IMG/VR virus record: IMGVR_UViG_3300033064_002265
Span: 1-32,832 of that record
Direction: 5' to 3' (one strand)
DNA: 32,832 nucleotides
DNA from: a virus
Of the stretch, positions 529-31,824 are shown one piece after another. Below the pieces are notes generated by a model. That model was not told where the DNA came from and ran no database searches. It saw only the letters and a program-made list of their open reading frames with translations. Made by a program: the position numbers and the translations under genes. Each line of letters opens with the position of its first letter. Position 1 is the first letter of the stretch.

Positions 529-560
529 TATTCAACCCCTTAATTGAGTAATAACGAGTA

Positions 561-592
561 GAACACTGTAACGATAACTTGAAACAGTGTTC
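561..592 (-). other. 9-bp hairpin in leader of the 196-528 gene
   Basis: GAACACTGT (561-569) and ACAGTGTTC (584-592) are perfect reverse complements separated by 14 bases. The hairpin lies between the promoter at 665-693 and the first gene, so it would form in the 5' leader RNA. There is no U-tract after it. It may be a stability or regulatory hairpin, or an operator-like dyad at DNA level. The palindrome CCGATCGG abuts it (592-599). Confidence 0.5.
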
Positions 593-664
593 CGATCGGC
601 ATTACCCGACGATACCTGATTTGCCCCCTATTAACTTTTCAAGGACCATAAATGAAGATACCAT

Positions 665-693
665 ACTATACACCAAAAACATATCAAAGTCAA
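665..693 (-). promoter_or_regulatory. Sigma70-type promoter P1, leftward
   Basis: On the minus strand TTGACT (693-688) and TATAGT (670-665) are separated by 17 bases, close to the TTGACA/TATAAT consensus. The flanks TTGACTTT and TGGTGTATAGT are identical to those of the promoter at 7486-7513. It reads towards the Cys-rich gene at 196-528 and the pentapeptide-repeat gene. The repeat of the whole element at two gene-cluster heads is the main support. Confidence 0.75.
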
Positions 694-860
694 GTAAAAA
701 AAGGAAAATAATACACGCAGAGTGTCAAAGCTCAATGACTCTTGATTGACATAACCGGAAGCTAAACAAGGACTTGCGTATCATGTAACCCCCTAGTAAA
801 GGATAATAGTTAATATTAAGAAGGTGTCATAGTACTCAGTAGTCAATTAACTATCTACAG

Positions 861-891
861 GACAGACTAAGCAAGGGCCTAGACAGACTAA
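861..891. repeat. Direct repeat GACAGACTAA, two copies 21 bases apart
   Basis: Identical 10-mers at 861-870 and 882-891 have start-to-start spacing of 21 bases, about two helical turns. That places both copies on one DNA face, as protein-binding sites often are. There is no other support for a binding site. Confidence 0.35.
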
Positions 892-1367
892 AGGGAGGAT
901 AACAGCAGTATTGATATAGTTAAGCCACAATGCACAGTCGGAAGCTGAAAGAAACCGCTCTCAATATACCCCTACAAGAGAGAACACAAGTATATAGTCT
1001 TTACTGCGTTTCCAGCCCTTAAGTGAAGTTAGGTATCCCCTCCAATATCTATTTCCCTGTGATTTCTTCAATATCTTGGCTCTTTACACTACTATAGCCA
1101 TACGCATAGTGTCTTCATCTCCCGGCTACCCTGATTATAAGGCTATTATGCAGGGTGACACAATCTGTCAAGTATGAGCTGTCCTATAATATCATCGAAA
1201 CTATCGAATCCATCGAGATAATAGATTTATATGCCCCCATTCCATAGGGGACGACACATGGTATGTGAGACAATAGGCTGACGATAGAGTATTGAGGCTT
1301 ATTGTGGGGTGATGTAGTGTTATGGGACGTTGGGGGTGTAGGTGGGGTCCGATCGGTAAATAAGGTA

Positions 1368-1394
1368 GGGACTGGGTGTTAGATACCCAGCCCC
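1368..1394 (-). terminator. Stable hairpin downstream of the leftward replication operon
   Basis: As minus-strand RNA, GGGGCUGGGU and ACCCAGUCCC pair over 10 positions (one G-U) around a 7-base loop. As plus-strand RNA the same position is an A-C mismatch, so the minus transcript is favoured. It lies about 65 bases after the stop of the 1459-1884 gene, where the leftward operon would end. No clear U-run follows, so it may be a 3'-end stabilising or processing hairpin rather than a classic intrinsic terminator. Confidence 0.5.
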
Positions 1395-1458
1395 TTCCAG
1401 TACAGAATTTATTGATTTAACGGCGATAGAAAAAATTTCTACATATATTTTGGGGGAT

Positions 1459-3180: not shown

Positions 3181-3387
3181 TTAGCCCTCTAACTTAGCCA
3201 GTTTTGTTATACTGGTTACATACCTACTTGGGAGTAGGTGTTTAGTGAGGGCTTCATAAATTAAATTCTTTCTAGCTATCTTTTTATTTGGTGCTAGGAC
3301 CAAAGCCGAGAAATGTGTGAGTATCCCATTACCAGAAAACTGTGGATTTGATATAATTACCCCATAGTACATTTTCTTCTTCATCAT
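3181..3387 (-). CDS. Small basic hypothetical protein
   Basis: The product is 68 aa, basic, beginning MMKKKMYYGVIISN; the first two codons are both ATG, so the start may be 3387 or 3384. AGGGG lies just upstream, and the 3384 start has the better spacing. The segment FSALVLAPNKKIARKNLIYEALTKHL suggests a beta-alpha unit. It follows the clamp-loader gene by six bases and overlaps its ribosome-site region, so it is clearly in the same operon. No function assigned. Confidence 0.65.
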   Translation of the reverse strand: MMKKKMYYGVIISNPQFSGNGILTHFSALVLAPNKKIARKNLIYEALTKHLLPSRYVTSITKLAKLEG

Positions 3388-3393
3388 TGTCCC

Positions 3394-4464
3394 CTATTTA
3401 GAAAATTTTTCCAATGAGTACAGCAGCAGACTAAGAATAACCTTATCTGTATTCTTCTCATTACCATATAGATCATGTAGTTTCGCAGTGAGTTGATATA
3501 GCTCGGTTAGGCTGAACTTCCTCTTCATGACATGGCAGAATTTGATGTTCCCCTTTGCTACTCCAATCTCACTCCCTGAGGACACTGTTGCTATTGAGGA
3601 GAACAACCCCATCAAGGAGGTGATCGCTGCGTTAGAACCCATACCAGCAGCAAAGAACAGATTCCAATGCTTCACCAAAGATTCTGCCTCCCTGTTCCCA
3701 AGAGCAGAAACAACACCATAGATATCCCTGAAGGTAGCACCCAGAACCTTTGATACTACTGCCAGATCATGCACTCCATCTACAGTAGCAACTTTCTCCA
3801 ACCACTTAATTCCATTTCTTATATTGCAATCTGAAAATGAGACTATAAGATCAAGCCCATCATCACTTACGCCAAGCTCTTCAGCAGTGTTGATTTTCTC
3901 CAAGACTGTTTTAATATTTTCCTCTCTTGCACTGTAGAAGGGAAACTGAGTGCACCTGCTCCTTATAGTGTCTGGAATCCTATCAACCTCAGTGGTAACT
4001 ATTATGAATTTCACATGAGATGGAGGCTCTTCCAAACCTTTTAGCAGTGCATTAAAGGCTGACTTACTAAGCATGTGTGCTTCATCTATGAGGTAGAACT
4101 TGGTATTGTTCTTTCTCATTGGAAGATAATACATATTTCTAAGGATCATTCTCACATCATCTACTGAATTTTTGTCTGATCCATTGATCTCTATAACATC
4201 AACATCGTCACCACCTTCAATTCCCTTACAGGATGAACATTCATTACAGGGGCATTTGGAAACACTATTCCCCTCACAATTCCAAAACTTTATAAAGGCT
4301 CTTGCCGAACTGGTTTTGCCCGTACCAGATGGGCCATGAAGCAAAGCAACATCAAAATCACCAACAGTCAGATATTTTGCAGACACTTGGCCAATTACCT
4401 CGTTGAGATTTTTTGGCCTATACTTTCTGGCTAGGTCTACAGTTTTAGTTTTCTTTCTGCCCAT
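3394..4464 (-). CDS. dnaX-like: DnaX-like clamp-loader ATPase (DNA polymerase III gamma/tau type)
   Basis: A 356-aa AAA+ protein. It shows KYRPKNLNEVIGQ at residues 14-26, Walker A GPSGTGKT at 44-51, a cysteine cluster (C63, C73, C76, C79) matching the DnaX zinc finger, Walker B with DEAH at 127-130, and an SRC arginine-finger motif at 169-171. Clamp loaders use ATP to open and place a sliding clamp on primed DNA. The length fits a gamma-like product with no tau extension. It overlaps the preceding gene by 20 bases and has GGGAG upstream of its ATG. It lies in the same operon as a family A polymerase, an unusual pairing. No sliding clamp or other loader subunit is in the window, so it may use host delta/delta-prime and the host clamp. 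Confidence 0.93.
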   Translation of the reverse strand: MGRKKTKTVDLARKYRPKNLNEVIGQVSAKYLTVGDFDVALLHGPSGTGKTSSARAFIKFWNCEGNSVSKCPCNECSSCKGIEGGDDVDVIEINGSDKNSVDDVRMILRNMYYLPMRKNNTKFYLIDEAHMLSKSAFNALLKGLEEPPSHVKFIIVTTEVDRIPDTIRSRCTQFPFYSAREENIKTVLEKINTAEELGVSDDGLDLIVSFSDCNIRNGIKWLEKVATVDGVHDLAVVSKVLGATFRDIYGVVSALGNREAESLVKHWNLFFAAGMGSNAAITSLMGLFSSIATVSSGSEIGVAKGNIKFCHVMKRKFSLTELYQLTAKLHDLYGNEKNTDKVILSLLLYSLEKFSK

Positions 4465-5232: not shown

Positions 5233-5341
5233 AATAGTTGTCCTCCCGAAGAGAAAGAAGAAATGCTATTTTATCGTGTGTGTTATATCTAAAGTGTCTT
5301 ATGAGGAATAGGATAAATCTTACTCTACGTCTTGGTTTCAT
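5222..5341 (-). CDS. 39-aa basic hydrophobic mini-protein
   Basis: This short gene starts at an ATG (5341-5339) overlapping the polymerase stop as TGATGA, and has one of the strongest ribosome sites in the window (GGAGGTGA, 4 bases before the ATG). The product begins MKPRRRVRFILFLIRHFRYN and ends LSLREDNYYGK; the mix of Arg and aliphatic residues suggests a membrane-surface or nucleic-acid-associated peptide. It ends 11 bases inside the next gene. No family recognised; the translation signals are the main evidence. Confidence 0.65.
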   Translation of the reverse strand: MKPRRRVRFILFLIRHFRYNTHDKIAFLLSLREDNYYGK

Positions 5342-7161
5342 CACTTCACCTCCGAATAGTTTTTACCAATTCCTATATCCACCTCAAGCGGAACTTTGAG
5401 TGTCATTGCATTTTTCATCGCACCAGACAAAGACTCAGCTACTTCCTCTGCATATCCATCGAAAGCCTCAAGTACGATCTCATCGTGCACTGTCATAAGT
5501 ATGGCAGCACCCCACTCAGGATGTTTATCAATCTCATCTTTCATCCTGAACATAGCCACTCGAATCATATCCGCAGACAGTGACTGAATGAGAAAGTTGA
5601 AAGCCTGACGATAGGATTTTTGTATGTGGGGGTCTAGCCTCCGTCGTCTTCCAGTTAGGCTCTTGACATATCCATGTTGTTTCAAATGCCATCGGCATCT
5701 TCTTATTGCTTTGTCAACCTCAGGGTAGGTCTTCATAAATCCATCTATGTAGGACTGTGCCTCCCCCTCAGATATCTTGAATGTCTTGCTGATACCTATT
5801 GCAGTTGTTCCATAGATGATCGGAAAATTGATCCCATTCTTTGCCTTGTACCTTTCAGAAGAAAACTTCTCCTTGTACTCTGCATAATCCTTATGGTCAG
5901 CACATAGAGCCTCCTCAGGAATACCAAGTTCAAAGACATAATCAGCAGTCATTAGATGGGGGTCTTTATTGTTATTGAAAGCATCTACTAATTTTGCATC
6001 GCCTGAAACGTGAGCTAGAACCCTAAGCTCTTGACCAGAGTAGTCACCACAGATCAAGGACTTACCCTCTGAACTTACAAAACACTTTCTGAAGTGAACT
6101 GGAAACTCCTCATGTGGTTTAGCTAGGTTCTGCATGTTGGGCTTACTGCTGCTGAATCTTCCAGTTCGTGTACCACAGTTATTGAAATCGCATCTAACTC
6201 TACCATCACCTGAAACCCACTCAGGGGCTTTTGTCAAACACTTATCAAGCACTGCTGTAACTACACTATATGTAATCATCTTCTTTACAAATGGGTTGTC
6301 TTTGTACTTTTCAAGGATAGGCTTGCTAACACTCTTCTTCCCAGTCTCGGTTAAGTCTGTAAGCTTCAGGCCAAACTTGTTCTCCAATATTTTTATCAAC
6401 TGGAGACTACTGCCTAAGTTGTGGGCTGATACAATTTCCTTCCCCCCGAACAACCCCGGCTGAATATGATAGCCACAATCTGCCATCTCGAACAACTCTT
6501 TTTCCAAGTCAAACTTCTTTGCAGAAACTTCTTTCTCCAATTTAGCACATTCCTCCAGATCGAACTTGATTCCATTAGAGTGCAGGTCAGCCAAAACGAA
6601 TTGGCATGGCATCTCAATCTCAAAAAACAACCTGTCCAACTTCTCTGCGTATAGACTTTTGTTAAAACCCTTGTGTAACTGCCAAGTCCAGATGGCATCG
6701 TTGGTAGCATACTCATAGAATCTTTTTGAAGAAACACCTTCGGATTCTGCTTCTTTCCAAGTCTGTGTTTCCACATTCAGATACTTGTTTGCTAGAAACT
6801 TCAAACCCAATCTGCTTTCTTCATTCAATAGATGTTGTGCTGTCATTGTGCAAAAGATATTCTTGGTTATATCAGTGATACCTGACTTATGGAGAACCTT
6901 AATATCGAATTGAGCGTTATGGAATATTAAGTATTTATTGCTTGTTCTCAGCATCTCTTTCAATTCTTCTATTGGTTCTTTACCCAACCTGTGTGTGTCA
7001 ACATAGCAGGCGTATTTACCGTCACAAAGGGAAAAACCTAACATCTTCAAATCATAATAATTGAGAGAAGTTGTCTCAGTATCAAGAGAAAGGACTTTGG
7101 TATTGGCCTTTGTTAAAAAATCCTTGAAGTCACCCACTATGTCTATAGGATAGATTATCAT
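5341..7161 (-). CDS. polA-like: DNA polymerase, family A (PolA/T7 type) with 3'-5' exonuclease
   Basis: A 606-aa replicative polymerase about the size of the Klenow fragment, without a 5'-nuclease domain. The N-terminal DEDDy proofreading exonuclease is intact: D27/E29 (LDTET), D86 (HNAQFD) and Y151-x3-D155 (YATND). The polymerase domain has TRTGRFSSSKPNMQNL near 332-346, motif A DYSGQELR at 373-380, motif B R437-x3-K441...F446...Y450-G, and motif C VHDE at 558-561. All catalytic carboxylates are present. Motif B has one extra residue between K441 and F446 compared with E. coli Pol I (K758-F762), and Pro where Gly is usual. The aromatic at the 762-equivalent position is Phe. It begins at the stop of the HTH gene (TAATG) and heads the replication operon. 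Confidence 0.97.
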   Translation of the reverse strand: MIIYPIDIVGDFKDFLTKANTKVLSLDTETTSLNYYDLKMLGFSLCDGKYACYVDTHRLGKEPIEELKEMLRTSNKYLIFHNAQFDIKVLHKSGITDITKNIFCTMTAQHLLNEESRLGLKFLANKYLNVETQTWKEAESEGVSSKRFYEYATNDAIWTWQLHKGFNKSLYAEKLDRLFFEIEMPCQFVLADLHSNGIKFDLEECAKLEKEVSAKKFDLEKELFEMADCGYHIQPGLFGGKEIVSAHNLGSSLQLIKILENKFGLKLTDLTETGKKSVSKPILEKYKDNPFVKKMITYSVVTAVLDKCLTKAPEWVSGDGRVRCDFNNCGTRTGRFSSSKPNMQNLAKPHEEFPVHFRKCFVSSEGKSLICGDYSGQELRVLAHVSGDAKLVDAFNNNKDPHLMTADYVFELGIPEEALCADHKDYAEYKEKFSSERYKAKNGINFPIIYGTTAIGISKTFKISEGEAQSYIDGFMKTYPEVDKAIRRCRWHLKQHGYVKSLTGRRRRLDPHIQKSYRQAFNFLIQSLSADMIRVAMFRMKDEIDKHPEWGAAILMTVHDEIVLEAFDGYAEEVAESLSGAMKNAMTLKVPLEVDIGIGKNYSEVK

Positions 7162-7463
7162 TAGAATTTCACCTTAACTTCGCCAATCCAATCACAAGCT
7201 CTCTCAGACCACACTCCAATCCTCCAAGGATTTCTCATCTTCTCCTTAGAAAAATCCAAAGGATTTGTCCATTTTACCCTAGTCTCCTTCAACATTGGAT
7301 ACTTTTTGAGCAAATGATCCCAAGCACTCCTGACAGTTTTGACGTTCCATCCAAGCTCATCTGCACATTTTTTGAAGGACAGTCCATCAAAAAGAGTATG
7401 TCTCAGCATTATCAATTCCAGCTCTATAGGCTCCATACCCAAACTCTTTATTAACTCTTCCAT
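7161..7463 (-). CDS. Small helix-turn-helix protein
   Basis: A 100-aa protein. A helix-turn-helix-like stretch (SFKKCADELGWNVKTVRSAWDHLLKK, about residues 29-54) resembles sigma-factor region 4 or a small DNA-binding regulator. The C-terminal part has several Trp residues (WTNPLD, NPWRIGVW, CDWIGEV) and no known domain. AAAGGGG lies before the ATG. It is the first gene after promoter 7486-7513 and its stop overlaps the polymerase start by one base. It may regulate the divergent promoters or act in replication initiation; this is inference. Confidence 0.75.
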   Translation of the reverse strand: MEELIKSLGMEPIELELIMLRHTLFDGLSFKKCADELGWNVKTVRSAWDHLLKKYPMLKETRVKWTNPLDFSKEKMRNPWRIGVWSERACDWIGEVKVKF

Positions 7464-7485
7464 TTTTAATCCCCTTTCTAATTAA

Positions 7486-7513
7486 ACTATACACCATAAA
7501 AAAGGAAAGTCAA
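7486..7513 (-). promoter_or_regulatory. Sigma70-type promoter P2 for the replication operon
   Basis: On the minus strand TTGACT (7513-7508) and TATAGT (7491-7486) are separated by 16 bases, ending about 22 bases before the ATG of the HTH gene. TTGACTTT and TGGTGTATAGT are identical to the promoter at 665-693. The ribosome site AAAGGGG follows between the -10 box and the start, so the leader is short. This is the best-supported promoter in the window. Confidence 0.8.
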
Positions 7514-7635
7514 ATGCTAAATTGACATAAATTAGTATATTCTGACATATCTTTTAATAGTAGGGATTGTACTGATTATAGCTACGGTTGTAGGGTCTGT
7601 AGGGAGAAGAGGTATGTCTGTGATTAAAGTATGAA

Positions 7636-7666
7636 GGGGCAGTGGGGGGAGCAGGGATGCGGGGGG
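7636..7666 (+). other. Canonical four-run G-quadruplex motif
   Basis: Four G-runs (GGGG, GGGGGG, GGG, GGGGGG) are separated by three 4-base loops (CAGT, AGCA, ATGC), which satisfies the G3+N1-7 rule with room to spare. In an AT-rich phage this is very unlikely by chance. It could form in the plus strand DNA or in the leader RNA of the virion operon. Confidence 0.75.
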
Positions 7667-7692
7667 ACAAAAAAGTTTGGATGGAACCAAGA

Positions 7693-7747
7693 ACCGACTC
7701 CGCAAGGAGTTGGTATCAAAAGAAGGTCGGGATGACCGAAAGTGATA
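7693..7747 (+). other. Two adjacent stable hairpins in the leader
   Basis: ACCGACTCC (7693-7701) pairs with GGAGTTGGT (7706-7714) with one G-U pair and a stable GCAA tetraloop. Immediately after, TATCA (7714-7718) pairs with TGATA (7743-7747) outside GGTC (7725-7728)/GACC (7734-7737). The tetraloop and tandem order favour RNA function on the plus strand. No U-tract follows, so this is not a simple terminator. Confidence 0.5.
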
Positions 7748-7876
7748 GGTTAAGAAAGTAGTCATGGATGACGGATAAGGGACTAATAACTGGGTGTCTG
7801 GAAGAATAAAACGTGTGTAGTGTTTATAACGAATACAATCAAAAAATGATTAAACTATGGAGGGGTAAGGCTTTAT

Positions 7877-8056
7877 ATGAAGAAGAAGTGTATAGAATGT
7901 GAGACTGTTAAACCTTTTACCGCTTTTAAAGAGCGTGAGGATGGGTGGGGTCTATATGCTTGGTGTGATGATTGCCGTAGCCGATTAGGTAGGCTCCACC
8001 CAAATCCAGAATCTGAAGAATTTATCAATAAAACTGGGGTATTTAATGCCTTCTAA
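7877..8056 (+). CDS. Zinc-finger stub upstream of terminase (HNH-nuclease-like N-terminus)
   Basis: A 59-aa gene from the ATG at 7877, with TAAGG 6 bases upstream. It begins KKKCIECETVKPFTAFKERE and continues to WCDDCRSR. This CxxC...CxxC zinc module with KPFxxF is commonly found at the N-terminus of phage HNH endonucleases and related proteins. Here no HNH motif follows; the frame ends after a short acidic tail and overlaps TerS by 11 bases. HNH proteins next to terminase genes assist packaging in HK97-type phages, so this may be a reduced relative or an independent DNA-binding protein. Confidence 0.7.
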   Translation: MKKKCIECETVKPFTAFKEREDGWGLYAWCDDCRSRLGRLHPNPESEEFINKTGVFNAF

Positions 8057-8651
8057 GAAAAGCACTGCACTTGTTTCCACAGATATGATTGACAGGAAGA
8101 AGGGGAATGGTGCTAGATTCCACGTAGACTTTATTGGATTGGTTGCTTCCTTGAAGGCTGCGGGACTCAGTGATGAGTACATAGAGAGCAAACTCAAAGT
8201 AAAACCACAAACTCTAAAGCGTTGGAGAAAAAATAATCCAGAGTTGGAACGGGCTTGGCAAGACGGTAAATGCGAGGCGTTAAAGCATCTGGTAGCCACA
8301 GCATATCAGGTAGCCACAGGTTATGACTTTCAGGAGACTGAAGAGGTTTACAAGGTAGAGAAAGACGACAAAGGTAAGTCCGTAGAAAATCTTGTAAAGA
8401 GGTCAAGGAAAACAAAGAGGCAAAAACCTGATACTGCTGTGCTAATATTCATGTTGTGTAATTTGGTACAGGGATTTAAGAACATTAAGAATGTAGAGGT
8501 TACTGAGAAGAAGAAGGTTGAGAGTCTTGAGTTGAAGGGTGAGGTAAGTGCTGAACAGATAATGCAACTCGCTGGAGCTTTAGTAAATCAGGCTCCTCAG
8601 GATTCTGCGAAGAGGAAAATTGTTGAGAGTGAGGTAGTGGATGGAGATTAG
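8046..8651 (+). CDS. terS: Terminase small subunit (putative)
   Basis: A 201-aa protein. Residues about 45-75 form a predicted helix-turn-helix (LSDEYIESKLKVKPQTLKRWRKNNPELERAW), a typical DNA-recognition domain of phage small terminases. The middle is basic (VKRSRKTKRQKPD), followed by a predicted oligomerisation segment (TAVLIFMLCNLVQGF) and a charged C-terminus. TerS binds the packaging site and recruits TerL to the genome. The gene overlaps the zinc stub by 11 bases and the TerL start by 11 bases. The ribosome site is weak, so coupling from the upstream gene is likely. Assignment rests on the HTH and on the position directly before TerL. Confidence 0.85.
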   Translation: MPSKKSTALVSTDMIDRKKGNGARFHVDFIGLVASLKAAGLSDEYIESKLKVKPQTLKRWRKNNPELERAWQDGKCEALKHLVATAYQVATGYDFQETEEVYKVEKDDKGKSVENLVKRSRKTKRQKPDTAVLIFMLCNLVQGFKNIKNVEVTEKKKVESLELKGEVSAEQIMQLAGALVNQAPQDSAKRKIVESEVVDGD

Positions 8652-10647
8652 TAAAGCTGATTCTCCTATTTCTTTTTTTGAGATGATACCTACTAATCTT
8701 GTGGAGAATATAGCTTTTAGAGTTAATCTCCACCAGAAGCTTGAAGCTGATAAGGGTTTCCAAAAAGTTTTCATTGAGATGGTCTTAGACTATCCACCGC
8801 TCTTTTATAATTCAATAGCTTGGACATTTAATCCGAGAAAACCAAGAGGACAGAAGAACCTTCCCTTTATTTTAAGACCTGCCCAGATAGATGCTGTTGA
8901 GGCAATTGACAAAGCCTTCAAAGAACACTACAACGCAGTGTTAGATAAAACAAGGGATGAAGGTGCTACTGAACTTATCACAAAATATTTTGCCATGCAC
9001 TTTCTGTTTAACGAGCAGACTCAGTTTTTAGTAGGATCAAGAAAAGCAGAGTTTGTTGATAAGGGTGTTGAACTGATTGGTGATAAGATCGTAGGGGCAC
9101 ACAAAACTCTCTTCCATAAGTTGCTCTACGGAGTACACACTGCACCTAACTGGGCAAAGCCAGAAAATTATCTGAAGACTTTTATGCTGCTTCAGAATCT
9201 TGACAACGGCTCTGTGATAAGTGGTGAATCAACAAACGAGAACTTTGGGGCTGGGGATAGGCAATCTGCGGTGTTGGTAGATGAGCTTGGTAGAATTGAA
9301 CATCGTGTGGCAAGAGCTTTGACTGAGAATCTAAGTGATGTAACTGATTCTACTTTTTATTGTTCTACTCACTTTTATGGTGCTGCACATCCTTACAACC
9401 AATTGATTACTCAGAAGATTGGTGATATAAAAGTAATCGTACTCCCTTGGGAAAGAAACCCAGAGAAAAATGAAGGGCTGTACCTATCACCAAATCCCGG
9501 CATCATTCAGATAAAAGACATAGACTACTACAGGGATATCTGTCCCTCAGTATTCAATGAAGTTATAGAGATGCAGGATTTTAATGTAGAGGTACATGAG
9601 GAAGAGCTACAACAACACGATATTACCTTTGTTGCTGATGGTGGGGATAGAAACGAAAAGGGTTGGCGTTCTGTTTGGTATGACCATGAGGAGACTGAGC
9701 GTTCCGCAAGAAACATGGCAGCGAACATCGACCGGAGGGCCGTTGGTTCCGGGGACACCTTCTTTTCACTTCCTGCGTTGGCACGAATGGAAGAGGAACA
9801 CTGTAGACGACCTGATTACGTTGGTGATATAAAACTTGACAGCACGATCACTGACAATGATAAACTCATAATAAATTCAGCAGCATTCATTGACAACAAA
9901 AGAGGGAAATTGCAATGGTGGGGCAAATTGGTCGATGGAAGACCTAGGCAGGATCATAACTATATCATTGCCTGTGACATCTCCAGAGGGACAGGGGCGT
10001 CTAACAGTGTTGCGGGTATCTACGATGTCAATACCTCTGAGAAGGTTGGAATTTGGGTTGATGCTTTGACATCTCCTCAGGATTTTGCTGACTTGACAGT
10101 GGGGATGTGCAAATGGGTTGGTGGTTCTTATTGGACCCCTTATCTTATCTGGGAAGGCAATGGACCCGGAGACTTATTTGAGCAGCGTGTTGTTCATCAT
10201 GGGTATAGTTTTGTTTATATCCGAAGAACAGAGGGCAAGATCAGGAAGAAGAAAATGGGCCAACGTGGTTGGTGGTCTAGTAGGGAGGGGAAGAGAAGAC
10301 TTTTACAGGATTTGGATGGGGCAATAGATTCAGCCATAAAGAAGGACAAGACAAGAAAGAAATTAATTATTCACGATGCAGATTCTATTCGTGAATATGA
10401 AAACTATATTGAGTACACTGCCGGTGGTTGTGGTCCCGCAAGGCTAATTGAAGAGTCTGACAATGCGAGAGCACTCCACGGTGACAGGGTAATTCCAGAC
10501 GGATTGTTTGTCCTCGCTAGTACGATACAGCCAGAAGCTGTCGCAAAAAAAGAGAAGAAGAGGCCAAAGCACTGCGTAGGAACACGATTAGAAAAGAGAA
10601 GGCAAGCAGCCAGAGAAAAAAGTCTTAATAAGAGGTTTCCCTATTAA
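8641..10647 (+). CDS. terL: Terminase large subunit (ATPase and nuclease)
   Basis: A 668-aa packaging motor. The ATPase domain has a non-canonical Walker A, KTRDEGAT (103-110), as usual for TerL, Walker B VLVDEL with D214/E215, and a coupling-type motif CSTH (241-244). The C-terminal RNase H-like nuclease domain begins with IIACDIS (D446), then IWEGNGPG near 503, and a later Asp-containing HGDRVIPDG segment likely supplies the last metal ligand. The tail is very basic (KKEKKRPKH...). The start ATG overlaps the end of TerS and GAGGT lies upstream. The protein works at the portal vertex to pump and cut DNA. The stop shares a base with the portal start. Confidence 0.93.
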   Translation: MEISKADSPISFFEMIPTNLVENIAFRVNLHQKLEADKGFQKVFIEMVLDYPPLFYNSIAWTFNPRKPRGQKNLPFILRPAQIDAVEAIDKAFKEHYNAVLDKTRDEGATELITKYFAMHFLFNEQTQFLVGSRKAEFVDKGVELIGDKIVGAHKTLFHKLLYGVHTAPNWAKPENYLKTFMLLQNLDNGSVISGESTNENFGAGDRQSAVLVDELGRIEHRVARALTENLSDVTDSTFYCSTHFYGAAHPYNQLITQKIGDIKVIVLPWERNPEKNEGLYLSPNPGIIQIKDIDYYRDICPSVFNEVIEMQDFNVEVHEEELQQHDITFVADGGDRNEKGWRSVWYDHEETERSARNMAANIDRRAVGSGDTFFSLPALARMEEEHCRRPDYVGDIKLDSTITDNDKLIINSAAFIDNKRGKLQWWGKLVDGRPRQDHNYIIACDISRGTGASNSVAGIYDVNTSEKVGIWVDALTSPQDFADLTVGMCKWVGGSYWTPYLIWEGNGPGDLFEQRVVHHGYSFVYIRRTEGKIRKKKMGQRGWWSSREGKRRLLQDLDGAIDSAIKKDKTRKKLIIHDADSIREYENYIEYTAGGCGPARLIEESDNARALHGDRVIPDGLFVLASTIQPEAVAKKEKKRPKHCVGTRLEKRRQAAREKSLNKRFPY

Positions 10648-12371
10648 TGTCTACTATACATGAAAAAAATGTAAGGATGAGTTTCCCAAAAAGGATTGCC
10701 AGATCAATCTTAGCGTGGGAAAGAAAATACGATCATGTTTTGCAAGCTCGCAACCTTATGTTAAAAGCTTGGGAGAGTGGTTACTCTTCAGCAAGGGATG
10801 ACCTCTCAAGGAATGGGGCACATCCGGTCAATCTTATTGACAGGGGTATGGCTATTTTGATCCCCTACCTTGTGATGAGTAATCCAAAAGTTTTAGTCAC
10901 TACCGAAAAAACAGAGTTCAAGCCATTTGCACTCACCACAGAGTTAGCTTTAAACCATTTCCTGAAAGAGATCAAATTTGCCAAGAGAACTCTACGACCT
11001 TTGGTAAGAGACGCTCTGCTCGGTTTGGGTATAGTCAAGACAGGGATAGCACGAAAGTGGCAGATACCTATTTTTGGTCATCTGCACGACGTAGGCCAAC
11101 CCTATGCTGATGTGATTGATATAAGTGATTATTTTGGTGATTGTACTTCAGATAACTTCGAGGGATTTGAGTTAGAGGGAAACCGTTTTAGGATGCAACT
11201 GGAGGTTGCTCAGGATTTATATCCCAAGTATGCCGACAGACTGAAATCTTCGTTTGGTAGGTGGGGAGATAGAAAACCACCAACAGCACCTCAGGACAAT
11301 GAATCAGGAACATTGAAAAATTTTGTTGAATTGGCCGAAGTTTGGTTGCCTGATGAAAAGACTATTATTACCATTGATCCCCATGACCCAGACGCTAAGA
11401 TTATGAAGACAGTTCACGCTGAATGCGATGAGTCTGGTCCTTATGATAAATTGGGTTTCAAGAATTTTTCAAAGACATTGATTGCACCCCCTCCGGTTTG
11501 GTTTTGGATGGACACTGACGCAGCATTAAATGTTATAGTCAATAAAGTTGTCAATCAAGCAAATTCACAAAAGGCAGTTCTGACTTATGAGGGGGACTCT
11601 GCTCAGGATGCTCAGAATATTGCATTGGCCGGGGATAGACAGGCTATAAGAGTTCAGTCAAAAGACGGAGTTGGTATATTTGAGTTCCCCGGTGTGGATA
11701 GGGAACAGTATCCTTGGATGCAATACCTTGAGGGACAGTATGCAAAGCAGGAAGTAAATCTTGATCAGCTTGGTGGAAGAAGTCCTGCTGCTGAGACTTT
11801 GGGACAGGAGCAAATGTTATTCTCTACTGCCAGCAAGGGTGTAGATGATATGGTTAATCAGGTGTATGATACCACATCTGATGTTCTAACAAAGCTGGCA
11901 AATTTTTTCTGGAAAGACCCCCTTTATCAGTTACCAGTAATCAAAAGGATTCCCGGATATGGTGACGTAGAGGTTATGTATGATGATGCTGCAAGAGAGG
12001 GTGAGTTCTTCGATTACAATTTTAATGTTGAGCCTTACTCAATGCAGAGGTTGAATCCTGATGCTGAGTACAGAAAACTTCTCAACTTCATGGGTCAGTG
12101 GGTATTGCCAACAGCCCAAATAGCAGCACAGCAGGGTGCGACAATAGATGTTCCTGTTGTAACGGAACAGCTTGCTAGATTCCTACAACTGAGGGAATTG
12201 GATAATTGGTATAAGCCTTCAGTACCATCAGCAGCCAAATTGAATCCGTACAACCCCCAACAGGGACAGACTAAGAATAAGTCAATAGCTGATGGCAGGA
12301 CTGGCTCAAATCCAGCAAGTGATCAGGCCAACAGTATGCAGAAAACTATGAAGAATGGGAACCCAGTGTAA
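10647..12371 (+). CDS. Portal protein
   Basis: A 574-aa protein directly after TerL (TAATG overlap). The N-terminus ERKYDHVLQARNLMLKAWESGY, followed by NLIDRGMAILIPYLVMSNPKVLV and helical and loop segments, is typical of phage portal or head-to-tail connector proteins. The polar C-terminus is Gln/Asn-rich and low complexity. The dodecameric portal forms the DNA channel at one capsid vertex and docks terminase and tail. No catalytic motif is expected. The position between TerL and the capsid genes, the size and the sequence style support the call; the exact subfamily is uncertain. Confidence 0.88.
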   Translation: MSTIHEKNVRMSFPKRIARSILAWERKYDHVLQARNLMLKAWESGYSSARDDLSRNGAHPVNLIDRGMAILIPYLVMSNPKVLVTTEKTEFKPFALTTELALNHFLKEIKFAKRTLRPLVRDALLGLGIVKTGIARKWQIPIFGHLHDVGQPYADVIDISDYFGDCTSDNFEGFELEGNRFRMQLEVAQDLYPKYADRLKSSFGRWGDRKPPTAPQDNESGTLKNFVELAEVWLPDEKTIITIDPHDPDAKIMKTVHAECDESGPYDKLGFKNFSKTLIAPPPVWFWMDTDAALNVIVNKVVNQANSQKAVLTYEGDSAQDAQNIALAGDRQAIRVQSKDGVGIFEFPGVDREQYPWMQYLEGQYAKQEVNLDQLGGRSPAAETLGQEQMLFSTASKGVDDMVNQVYDTTSDVLTKLANFFWKDPLYQLPVIKRIPGYGDVEVMYDDAAREGEFFDYNFNVEPYSMQRLNPDAEYRKLLNFMGQWVLPTAQIAAQQGATIDVPVVTEQLARFLQLRELDNWYKPSVPSAAKLNPYNPQQGQTKNKSIADGRTGSNPASDQANSMQKTMKNGNPV

Positions 12372-31282: not shown

Positions 31283-31502
31283 TTTTCACCTTCACCTTTC
31301 CAGACTTGGTTGTGGGGAAACCCAATTTACTGAGTTCACTGTGACAGATTTCCAGACCCTCATCTGACAAAATTACTAAATCTTGATAAGCCTTTTCAGT
31401 ATCACTTGTCTTCTTCCCCATCATAAAGAGCATTCCATCCTCTTTCTCAAGTTTAACATCAACGGATGGTTTTTCTTCTTGTCCATCTATTCTAAACTTC
31501 AT
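31275..31502 (-). CDS. Small hypothetical protein downstream of GroES
   Basis: The start is probably the second of two adjacent ATGs (31502; 31505 also possible), because GGGGAGG lies 6 bases upstream; a further ATG at 31517 would overlap the ribosome site. The 75-aa product reads MKFRIDGQEEKPSVDVKLEKEDGMLFMMGKK... and is charged, with mixed alpha/beta character and a basic end. The first bases overlap the tail of the GroES-like gene. No family recognised. Confidence 0.65.
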   Translation of the reverse strand: MKFRIDGQEEKPSVDVKLEKEDGMLFMMGKKTSDTEKAYQDLVILSDEGLEICHSELSKLGFPTTKSGKVKVKNA

Positions 31503-31824
31503 CATCTTCCTCCCCATTACAAGCCTCTTCTGATTCTTCCATTATAGCTAGGATCGTCCCACCATCCACAATATAAACATCCTCAGTTCCGGGAACTGGA
31601 GGACACATCTTGGCACAACCGGGAAGGATCAAAACTCTAGCACCAACTTTCAAATGTTTCGTATGCTTCTGAAGGTCTTCTCCGTCACCCACTCCAAGAA
31701 CCCTTGCAACCTCAAGGAAAATTCTTTTACTTTGTTCTGGGAGACAAATCCCCCCCTCAGTTGTATTTTCAGGGATAACCCTGATTGCTACATTGTTACC
31801 TAATACATGAGTCATTGTCAACAT
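31492..31824 (-). CDS. groES-like: GroES-like co-chaperonin (Cpn10)
   Basis: A 110-aa protein with AGGAG 6 bases before its ATG. It aligns along its whole core with GroES: an N-terminal strand (NNVAIRVIP), the mobile-loop motif EGGICL (GroES: AGGIVL; here GG at 24-25, ICL at 26-28), then VARVLGVGDG matching EVLAVGNG, LKVGARVLILPG matching VKVGDIVIFNDG, and a final EDVYIVDGGTILAIME matching EEVLIMSESDILAIVE. An acidic tail of about 15 residues (EACNGEEDDEV) is extra. Phage co-chaperonins such as T4 gp31 replace GroES on host GroEL to fold the capsid protein; a like role for the capsid protein at 15091-16176 is inferred. No GroEL-type gene was seen in the window. Confidence 0.92.
   Translation of the reverse strand: MLTMTHVLGNNVAIRVIPENTTEGGICLPEQSKRIFLEVARVLGVGDGEDLQKHTKHLKVGARVLILPGCAKMCPPVPGTEDVYIVDGGTILAIMEESEEACNGEEDDEV

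What the first reader, a model, noticed from the sequence alone, without database searches (positions are those of the whole stretch)
7636..7666. Canonical G-quadruplex motif in the divergent promoter region
Four G-runs of 3-6 bases with equal 4-base loops sit just upstream of the virion operon, in an AT-rich genome. This is rare by chance. It could act as a leader-RNA switch, a replication or packaging mark, or a promoter regulator.
Basis: seen in the sequence. Interest (0 to 1): 0.6.

Follow-up and report, generated by a model that had tools for sequence, protein, structure and literature searches.

The report
Conserved paired G-runs before phage operon
A pair of six- or seven-G runs, usually about 210-260 bases upstream of the virion-gene operon, recurs in three deep branches of an uncultured phage family, so it is very probably a working control element, perhaps one that acts by forming an unusual four-stranded structure when transcribed.

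Summary
The G-run cluster is real: GGGG-CAGT-GGGGGG-AGCA-GGG-ATGC-GGGGGG at 7636-7666. A canonical four-run G4 is not rare by chance in this window (25% of shuffles have one). What recurs is two runs of 6-7 Gs (7644-7649 and 7661-7666) with a variable linker. This pair lies upstream of the terminase genes, on the operon's sense strand, in 6 of 35 TerL relatives, against 0.023 expected from shuffles and none in the other 328 kb of those loci. The six fall in three well-supported TerL clades. In the closest relative (52% TerL identity) the element and the second promoter copy are the two clearly alignable stretches of the leader. The first G-run is not conserved. The middle GGG sits in the loop of a possible mini-hairpin. 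In two lineages the element sits at the start of a duplicated copy of the operon's promoter region. My preferred mechanism is a transcription-dependent G-quadruplex or RNA:DNA-hybrid quadruplex, like mitochondrial CSB II, that pauses polymerase or stabilises an R-loop. That mechanism is inferred, not shown. Packaging-site, protein-site and origin readings remain open.

The parts
7644..7666 (+). Core conserved element: G6 - AGCAGGGATGC - G6
   Evidence: Same double G6-7 run in the leader of L055/G013, L007/L008, L046, L043 and L009
7636..7639 (+).
   Evidence: Comparison with L055/G013
7651..7660 (+). Linker mini-hairpin GCA-GGGA-TGC; GGCA-GGGA-TGCC in L055/G013.
   Evidence: Sequence comparison and predicted fold; small evidence
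7621..7639 (+). Promoter-like copy 1 (TGATTAAAGTATGAAGGGG), running into the G element
   Evidence: 17 of 19 match copy 2, spacing 226; 0 of 300 shuffles as good
7847..7865 (+). Promoter-like copy 2 (TGATTAAACTATGGAGGGG), before the first gene of the operon
   Evidence: aligns with the G013 leader at E 0.002
7667..7876 (+). Rest of the leader, G-over-C skewed, with a stable GCAA-capped hairpin near 7693-7715
   Evidence: Fold z -2.24; skew; hairpin not shown to be conserved
7877..8056 (+). First gene of the operon, 59-aa zinc-ribbon-like protein
   Evidence: Weak PHROG match to endonuclease VII N-terminus
8046..8651 (+). Terminase small subunit (TerS)
   Evidence: PHROG 309, E 7.6e-20
8641..10647 (+). 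Terminase large subunit (TerL), used to find relatives
   Evidence: PHROG 5989, E 8.1e-7; relatives
7161..7463 (-). Divergent small helix-turn-helix protein, weakly like sigma-70 region 4; possible regulator of this promoter region
   Evidence: PF08281 E 0.004, below cut-off; the gene in the same place in L007 passes the PF04545 cut-off

Best explanation
The feature is a conserved cis element: two runs of 6-7 Gs on the sense strand, joined by a short linker or a small hairpin, in the leader of the terminase/virion operon and, in two of the three lineages, at the start of a duplicated copy of the promoter region. Shown: its presence, strand, position and recurrence. Inferred: when polymerase starting at promoter copy 1 transcribes it, the G-runs in the RNA and in the displaced non-template DNA strand associate as a G-quadruplex, most likely an RNA:DNA hybrid because two DNA runs suffice. 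This stalls or terminates polymerase and/or holds an R-loop, so that output from copy 1 is throttled, or diverted to priming replication, while copy 2 downstream drives the operon directly. It would work like mitochondrial CSB II.
For: Double G6-7 runs in 6 of 35 leaders, all on the sense strand, 0.023 expected, none in 328 kb elsewhere in the same loci. Three supported TerL clades. The element is one of two clearly alignable stretches between the window and G013 leaders. It abuts or closely follows a duplicated promoter copy in W, L055 and L007. Linkers of 3-14 nt, the longest self-complementary, fit a looped single strand. Quadruplex-allowing energy models favour quadruplexes in the RNA of all elements tested, though barely in L009. 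[quoted passage not shown] CSB II, mostly G6AG7 or G6AG8, terminates transcription and holds R-loops this way.
Against: No start site or transcript is known, and copy 1 is not a canonical sigma-70 promoter. The promoter duplication was not found in L046, L043 or L009. G-over-C skew downstream of the element is clear only in W, G013 and L046. With 6-G runs an intramolecular three-tetrad quadruplex is not possible without other runs. A sister clade (L004, L005, L036, L037, L060) lacks the element.
Confidence: 0.4

Rival explanations
1. Packaging-initiation site (cos or pac) of the terminase: the G-pair marks where TerS/TerL bind or cut, just upstream of their own genes.
For: Always on one strand upstream of terS/terL; packaging sites often lie beside terS (own knowledge).
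Against: No genome end was found at the element: it is internal in G013, and G013 is assembled with a terminal overlap. Many close TerL relatives lack it.
Confidence: 0.2
2. Duplex DNA site for a protein (for example the divergent sigma-region-4-like protein or a host factor) that reads two GGGGGG boxes as a direct repeat.
For: Run pairs of near-equal length (6/6, 7/7) in a promoter region; a divergent DNA-binding-type gene.
Against: Start-to-start spacing of the runs varies from 9 to 20 bp with no helical phase (sequences). Relatives with the same kind of divergent gene (L005) lack the boxes.
Confidence: 0.18
3. Part of the replication origin: the leader is the origin, and the G-runs with the 9-bp iterons open DNA or hold a primer.
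For: Cumulative GC skew turns at the divergence point (confounded by gene strand). 9-bp iterons are concentrated upstream of the operon (25 matches in 30.5 kb against 15 in 345 kb).
Against: Iterons also occur in relatives without the G element and are weak or absent in several with it. A second iteron and G-run region lies elsewhere in G013.
Confidence: 0.15
4. Chance: G-rich leaders throw up G-runs.
For: Within the window alone a four-run G4 is found in 25% of shuffles. The window leader has a strong G-over-C skew.
Against: Recurrence in the same region and on the same strand in three clades, 0.023 loci expected.
Confidence: 0.03

Closest known systems
[quoted passage not shown]
   Same: Two G-runs of similar length on the non-template strand, downstream of a promoter; forms RNA, DNA and hybrid quadruplexes that stop transcription and hold R-loops (PMC8780183, PMC6317783)
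   Different: Linker is 3-14 nt rather than one A; a phage genome; near the presumed start of the transcript rather than about 120 nt in; no activity shown here
Putative DNA:RNA hybrid-quadruplex sequences (PHQS) near transcription starts of warm-blooded animals
   Same: At least two G-tracts on the non-template strand near a start site (PMC3905843)
   Different: PHQS loops are 1-7 nt; the W and G013 linkers are 11 and 14 nt, although they contain a GGG, which makes the pattern match formally
ColE1 RNA II primer
   Same: A G-run in a primer RNA helps keep a persistent RNA:DNA hybrid (own knowledge)
   Different: No RNA II match or any other above-threshold Rfam match in the leader
Lambdoid late-operon leader (P_R' with its pause site and leader terminator)
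   Same: A leader of about 200 nt before the late operon where elongation control would act (own knowledge)
   Different: No intrinsic terminator found in the leader; no Q-type gene identified

Membership tests
Canonical intramolecular G-quadruplex motif | Four G3+ runs with loops of 1-7 nt | tested here: met
   Met in the window and formally in L007/L008 by splitting the long runs
Canonical intramolecular G-quadruplex motif | The four runs are conserved in relatives | tested here: not met
   L055/G013 lacks the first run; L046 and L009 have only two 6-G runs
Canonical intramolecular G-quadruplex motif | K+-dependent quadruplex fold | not testable with these tools
   Energy model only: W element -6.8 against -2.7 kcal/mol with and without quadruplexes
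CSB II-like / hybrid-quadruplex element | Two or more G-tracts on the non-template strand | tested here: met
   All six elements lie on the operon's sense strand
CSB II-like / hybrid-quadruplex element | Located just downstream of a promoter | tested here: inconclusive
   Follows a duplicated promoter-like copy in W, L055 and L007 only; no start site mapped
CSB II-like / hybrid-quadruplex element | Stops transcription and holds an R-loop | not testable with these tools
   Needs in vitro transcription
cos / pac packaging site | Genome end or cut at the site | tested here: inconclusive
   Element internal in G013; no read data for physical ends
T7-type phage promoter | Phage-encoded single-subunit RNA polymerase | tested here: inconclusive
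   PF00940 found in none of the related records searched, including ones of 45-51 kb, but the search's control genomes gave no match either

The most novel reading that the evidence does not exclude
An uncultured phage family uses a CSB II-like hybrid quadruplex: transcription from a duplicated promoter stalls at a G6-linker-G6 element and leaves an R-loop that primes genome replication by the phage's family A polymerase, so that one element links replication to virion gene expression.
Probability: 0.13. Interest if true: 0.82.

Novelty: new variant of a known kind. Interest (0 to 1): 0.5.

Why it matters
Putative G-quadruplexes in phage genomes are mostly counted rather than tested by comparison (example found here: PMC8036883). 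Here the run pair recurs in three clades while the surrounding leader has diverged beyond alignment, which is a good sign of function. If it acts through RNA:DNA hybrid quadruplexes, it would be a phage counterpart of mitochondrial CSB II, and the minimal unit (two runs, not four) would explain why four-run scans miss most copies. The natural set of variants (linkers 3-14 nt, runs of 6-9) gives a ready test series.

Tried and rejected
T7-like promoter/polymerase: the copies resemble ACTATAGGGAGA, but no PF00940 gene was found in the related records (the control did not ring, so absence is not proven). Rfam and tRNA scans of the leader: only sub-threshold chance matches. CsrA-sponge idea (GGA loops): GGA not enriched over shuffles in W or G013. 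A contig end at the element (L170) as a sign of a genome terminus: an artefact of the stored stretch; the region is internal in the 45-kb record. General R-loop-prone GC skew: clear only in W, G013 and L046. Intrinsic terminators in or near the leader: none. DNA similarity of the leader to named phages: none. Pattern scans for the element: apart from L055/L170 and L046 the hits looked unrelated by their sequence context. The Shine-Dalgarno reading of GGAGGGG could fit copy 2 in some relatives but not copy 1, which precedes no gene. Searches for relatives with single proteins found almost nothing; only TerL alignments worked.

Full report
OBSERVATION. The window is a 32,832-base IMG/VR virus record. 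At 7636-7666 the + strand reads GGGG CAGT GGGGGG AGCA GGG ATGC GGGGGG, as stated, and it is the only G3+/loop 1-7 motif in the window on either strand. In 300 dinucleotide shuffles of the window, 25% contain such a motif, so the four-run motif alone is not remarkable; a pair of G6 runs within 14 nt occurs in 3.3%.

SURROUNDINGS. The motif lies in a gap (7464-7876) between minus-strand genes (a small helix-turn-helix protein 7161-7463 and a family A DNA polymerase 5341-7161) and the plus-strand operon of a zinc-ribbon-like protein, TerS, TerL and, by synteny with the distant relative L002, the likely portal and capsid genes. The helix-turn-helix protein is weakly like sigma-70 region 4; the gene in the same place in relative L007 passes the Pfam cut-off. 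The gap holds two copies of a 19-nt sequence, TGATTAAAGTATGAAGGGG (7621) and TGATTAAACTATGGAGGGG (7847), 226 nt apart; none of 300 shuffles gives as good a repeat. Copy 1 runs into the G element; copy 2 lies before the first gene. That they are promoters is inferred from place and from their recurrence before this operon; neither is a canonical sigma-70 promoter.

RELATIVES. TerL alignment searches gave about 40 relatives in IMG/VR at roughly 35-52% identity. Of 35 non-redundant ones with enough upstream DNA, six carry G6+ N(1-14) G6+ on the operon's sense strand in the region 600-1400 nt upstream of TerL: W, L055, L007, L046, L043, L009. The shuffle expectation is 0.023 loci (largest 1), and no further case occurs in the other 327,837 bases of these loci on either strand. 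The elements read W GGGGGGAGCAGGGATGCGGGGGGaca; L055 GGGGGGAAGGCAGGGATGCCGGGGGGata; L007 GGGGGGGGGATAATAGGGGGGGaca; L008 GGGGGGGATAATAGGGGGGGaca; L046 GGGGGGAGGATAGGGGGGaca; L043 GGGGGGGATACACAGGGGGGGcgg; L009 GGGGGGATAGGGGGGcac. On a maximum-likelihood TerL tree they form three supported clades, W+G013, L009+L043 and L007/L008+L046, needing three changes of the label against 6.6 in shuffles. One gain with losses, or several gains, are both possible. The distance from the element to the first recognised gene is 209-262 nt, except in L009 (377 nt, to TerS).

WHAT IS CONSERVED. The relative G013 (45,336 bases with a 114-bp terminal overlap, so probably complete; 99% identical to L055 over 1.4 kb here, TerL of L055 52% to the window) has a leader that aligns to the window's in two clear stretches only: the G element (E 4e-5) and the copy-2 promoter with its upstream iterons (E 0.002). 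G013 lacks the window's first G-run. In both, the centre is a possible small hairpin, GCA-GGGA-TGC or GGCA-GGGA-TGCC; the extra pair in G013 is added on both sides, which suggests that the stem is real, though the case is small. So the unit that recurs is two G6-7 runs with a short linker or a capped one, not four G3 runs. The promoter duplication recurs: 45 nt at 78% in L055 (the first copy ends 15 nt before the element) and 75 nt at 92% in L007 (the first copy ends in the first run). It was not found in L046, L043 or L009.

MECHANISM. Shown: presence, strand, place, recurrence. Inferred: function. Linker lengths from 3 to 14 nt, the longest self-complementary, and mostly equal run lengths point to a structure in which the linker is a loop, that is, a single strand of DNA or RNA, rather than to two fixed duplex sites. 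Energy models that allow quadruplexes favour them in the RNA of all elements tested, strongly for the 7-G runs and barely in L009. [quoted passage not shown]). I therefore favour a transcription-dependent quadruplex or R-loop element at the start of the leader. I put this at 0.4, because start sites, polymerase type and structure are all unmeasured, and the G-over-C skew typical of R-loop regions is not shared by all members. Packaging (0.2), a duplex protein site (0.18) and a replication-origin part (0.15) stay open.

KNOWN KINDS. By layout it works most like CSB II/PHQS; membership is not claimed, because the promoter criterion is only partly met and the activity is untested. No similar leader was found in 50,697 named phage records. 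I rate it a new variant of a known kind.

LIMITS. L007 and L008 differ in the first run (9 against 7 Gs), which may be real or an assembly artefact. The absence of the pair in the sister clade L004/L005/L036/L037/L060 means that it is dispensable or replaced there.

Noticed in passing
window 530-1458, and G013 about 9840-10750 counted on the reverse complement of the record (loci L184-L186): A second long noncoding stretch among early minus-strand genes is shared by the window and G013, with a conserved 30-nt G-rich segment (GGGGGTGTAGGTGGGGTCCGATC..., E 1e-4). In G013 it also holds a second double G-run (GGGGGGCTACTAATGGGGGGG) and iterons; it could be an early promoter or origin region.
   Followed up: partly
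L055:3074-3118 and 3361-3405; leaders of L003, L060, L064; window about 7565-7606 and 7825: 9-bp tandem iterons of the type GATTATAAC/GATTGTAAC lie upstream of the operon promoters in several relatives: 25 matches in 30.5 kb of upstream DNA against 15 in 345 kb elsewhere. They may be sites of a phage regulator or initiator.
   Followed up: partly
L004:382, L005:6096, L007:1499 and 1726; L036, L037 and L060 upstream of the operon: A TATAGAGGGAG(ACC)-like sequence precedes the operon in many relatives and resembles T7-type promoters, but no T7-type polymerase gene was found.
   Followed up: partly
L055:662-2848: The helix-turn-helix protein and the family A polymerase are read as one 728-aa frame in L055 but as two genes in the near-identical G013; a sequencing error or a real fusion.
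   Followed up: no
window 31492-31824 (-): A GroES-like (Cpn10) co-chaperonin gene in the phage (PF00166, E 9.5e-7).
   Followed up: no
window 7543-7618: A 12-bp inverted repeat closes a long predicted hairpin just upstream of promoter copy 1.
   Followed up: no
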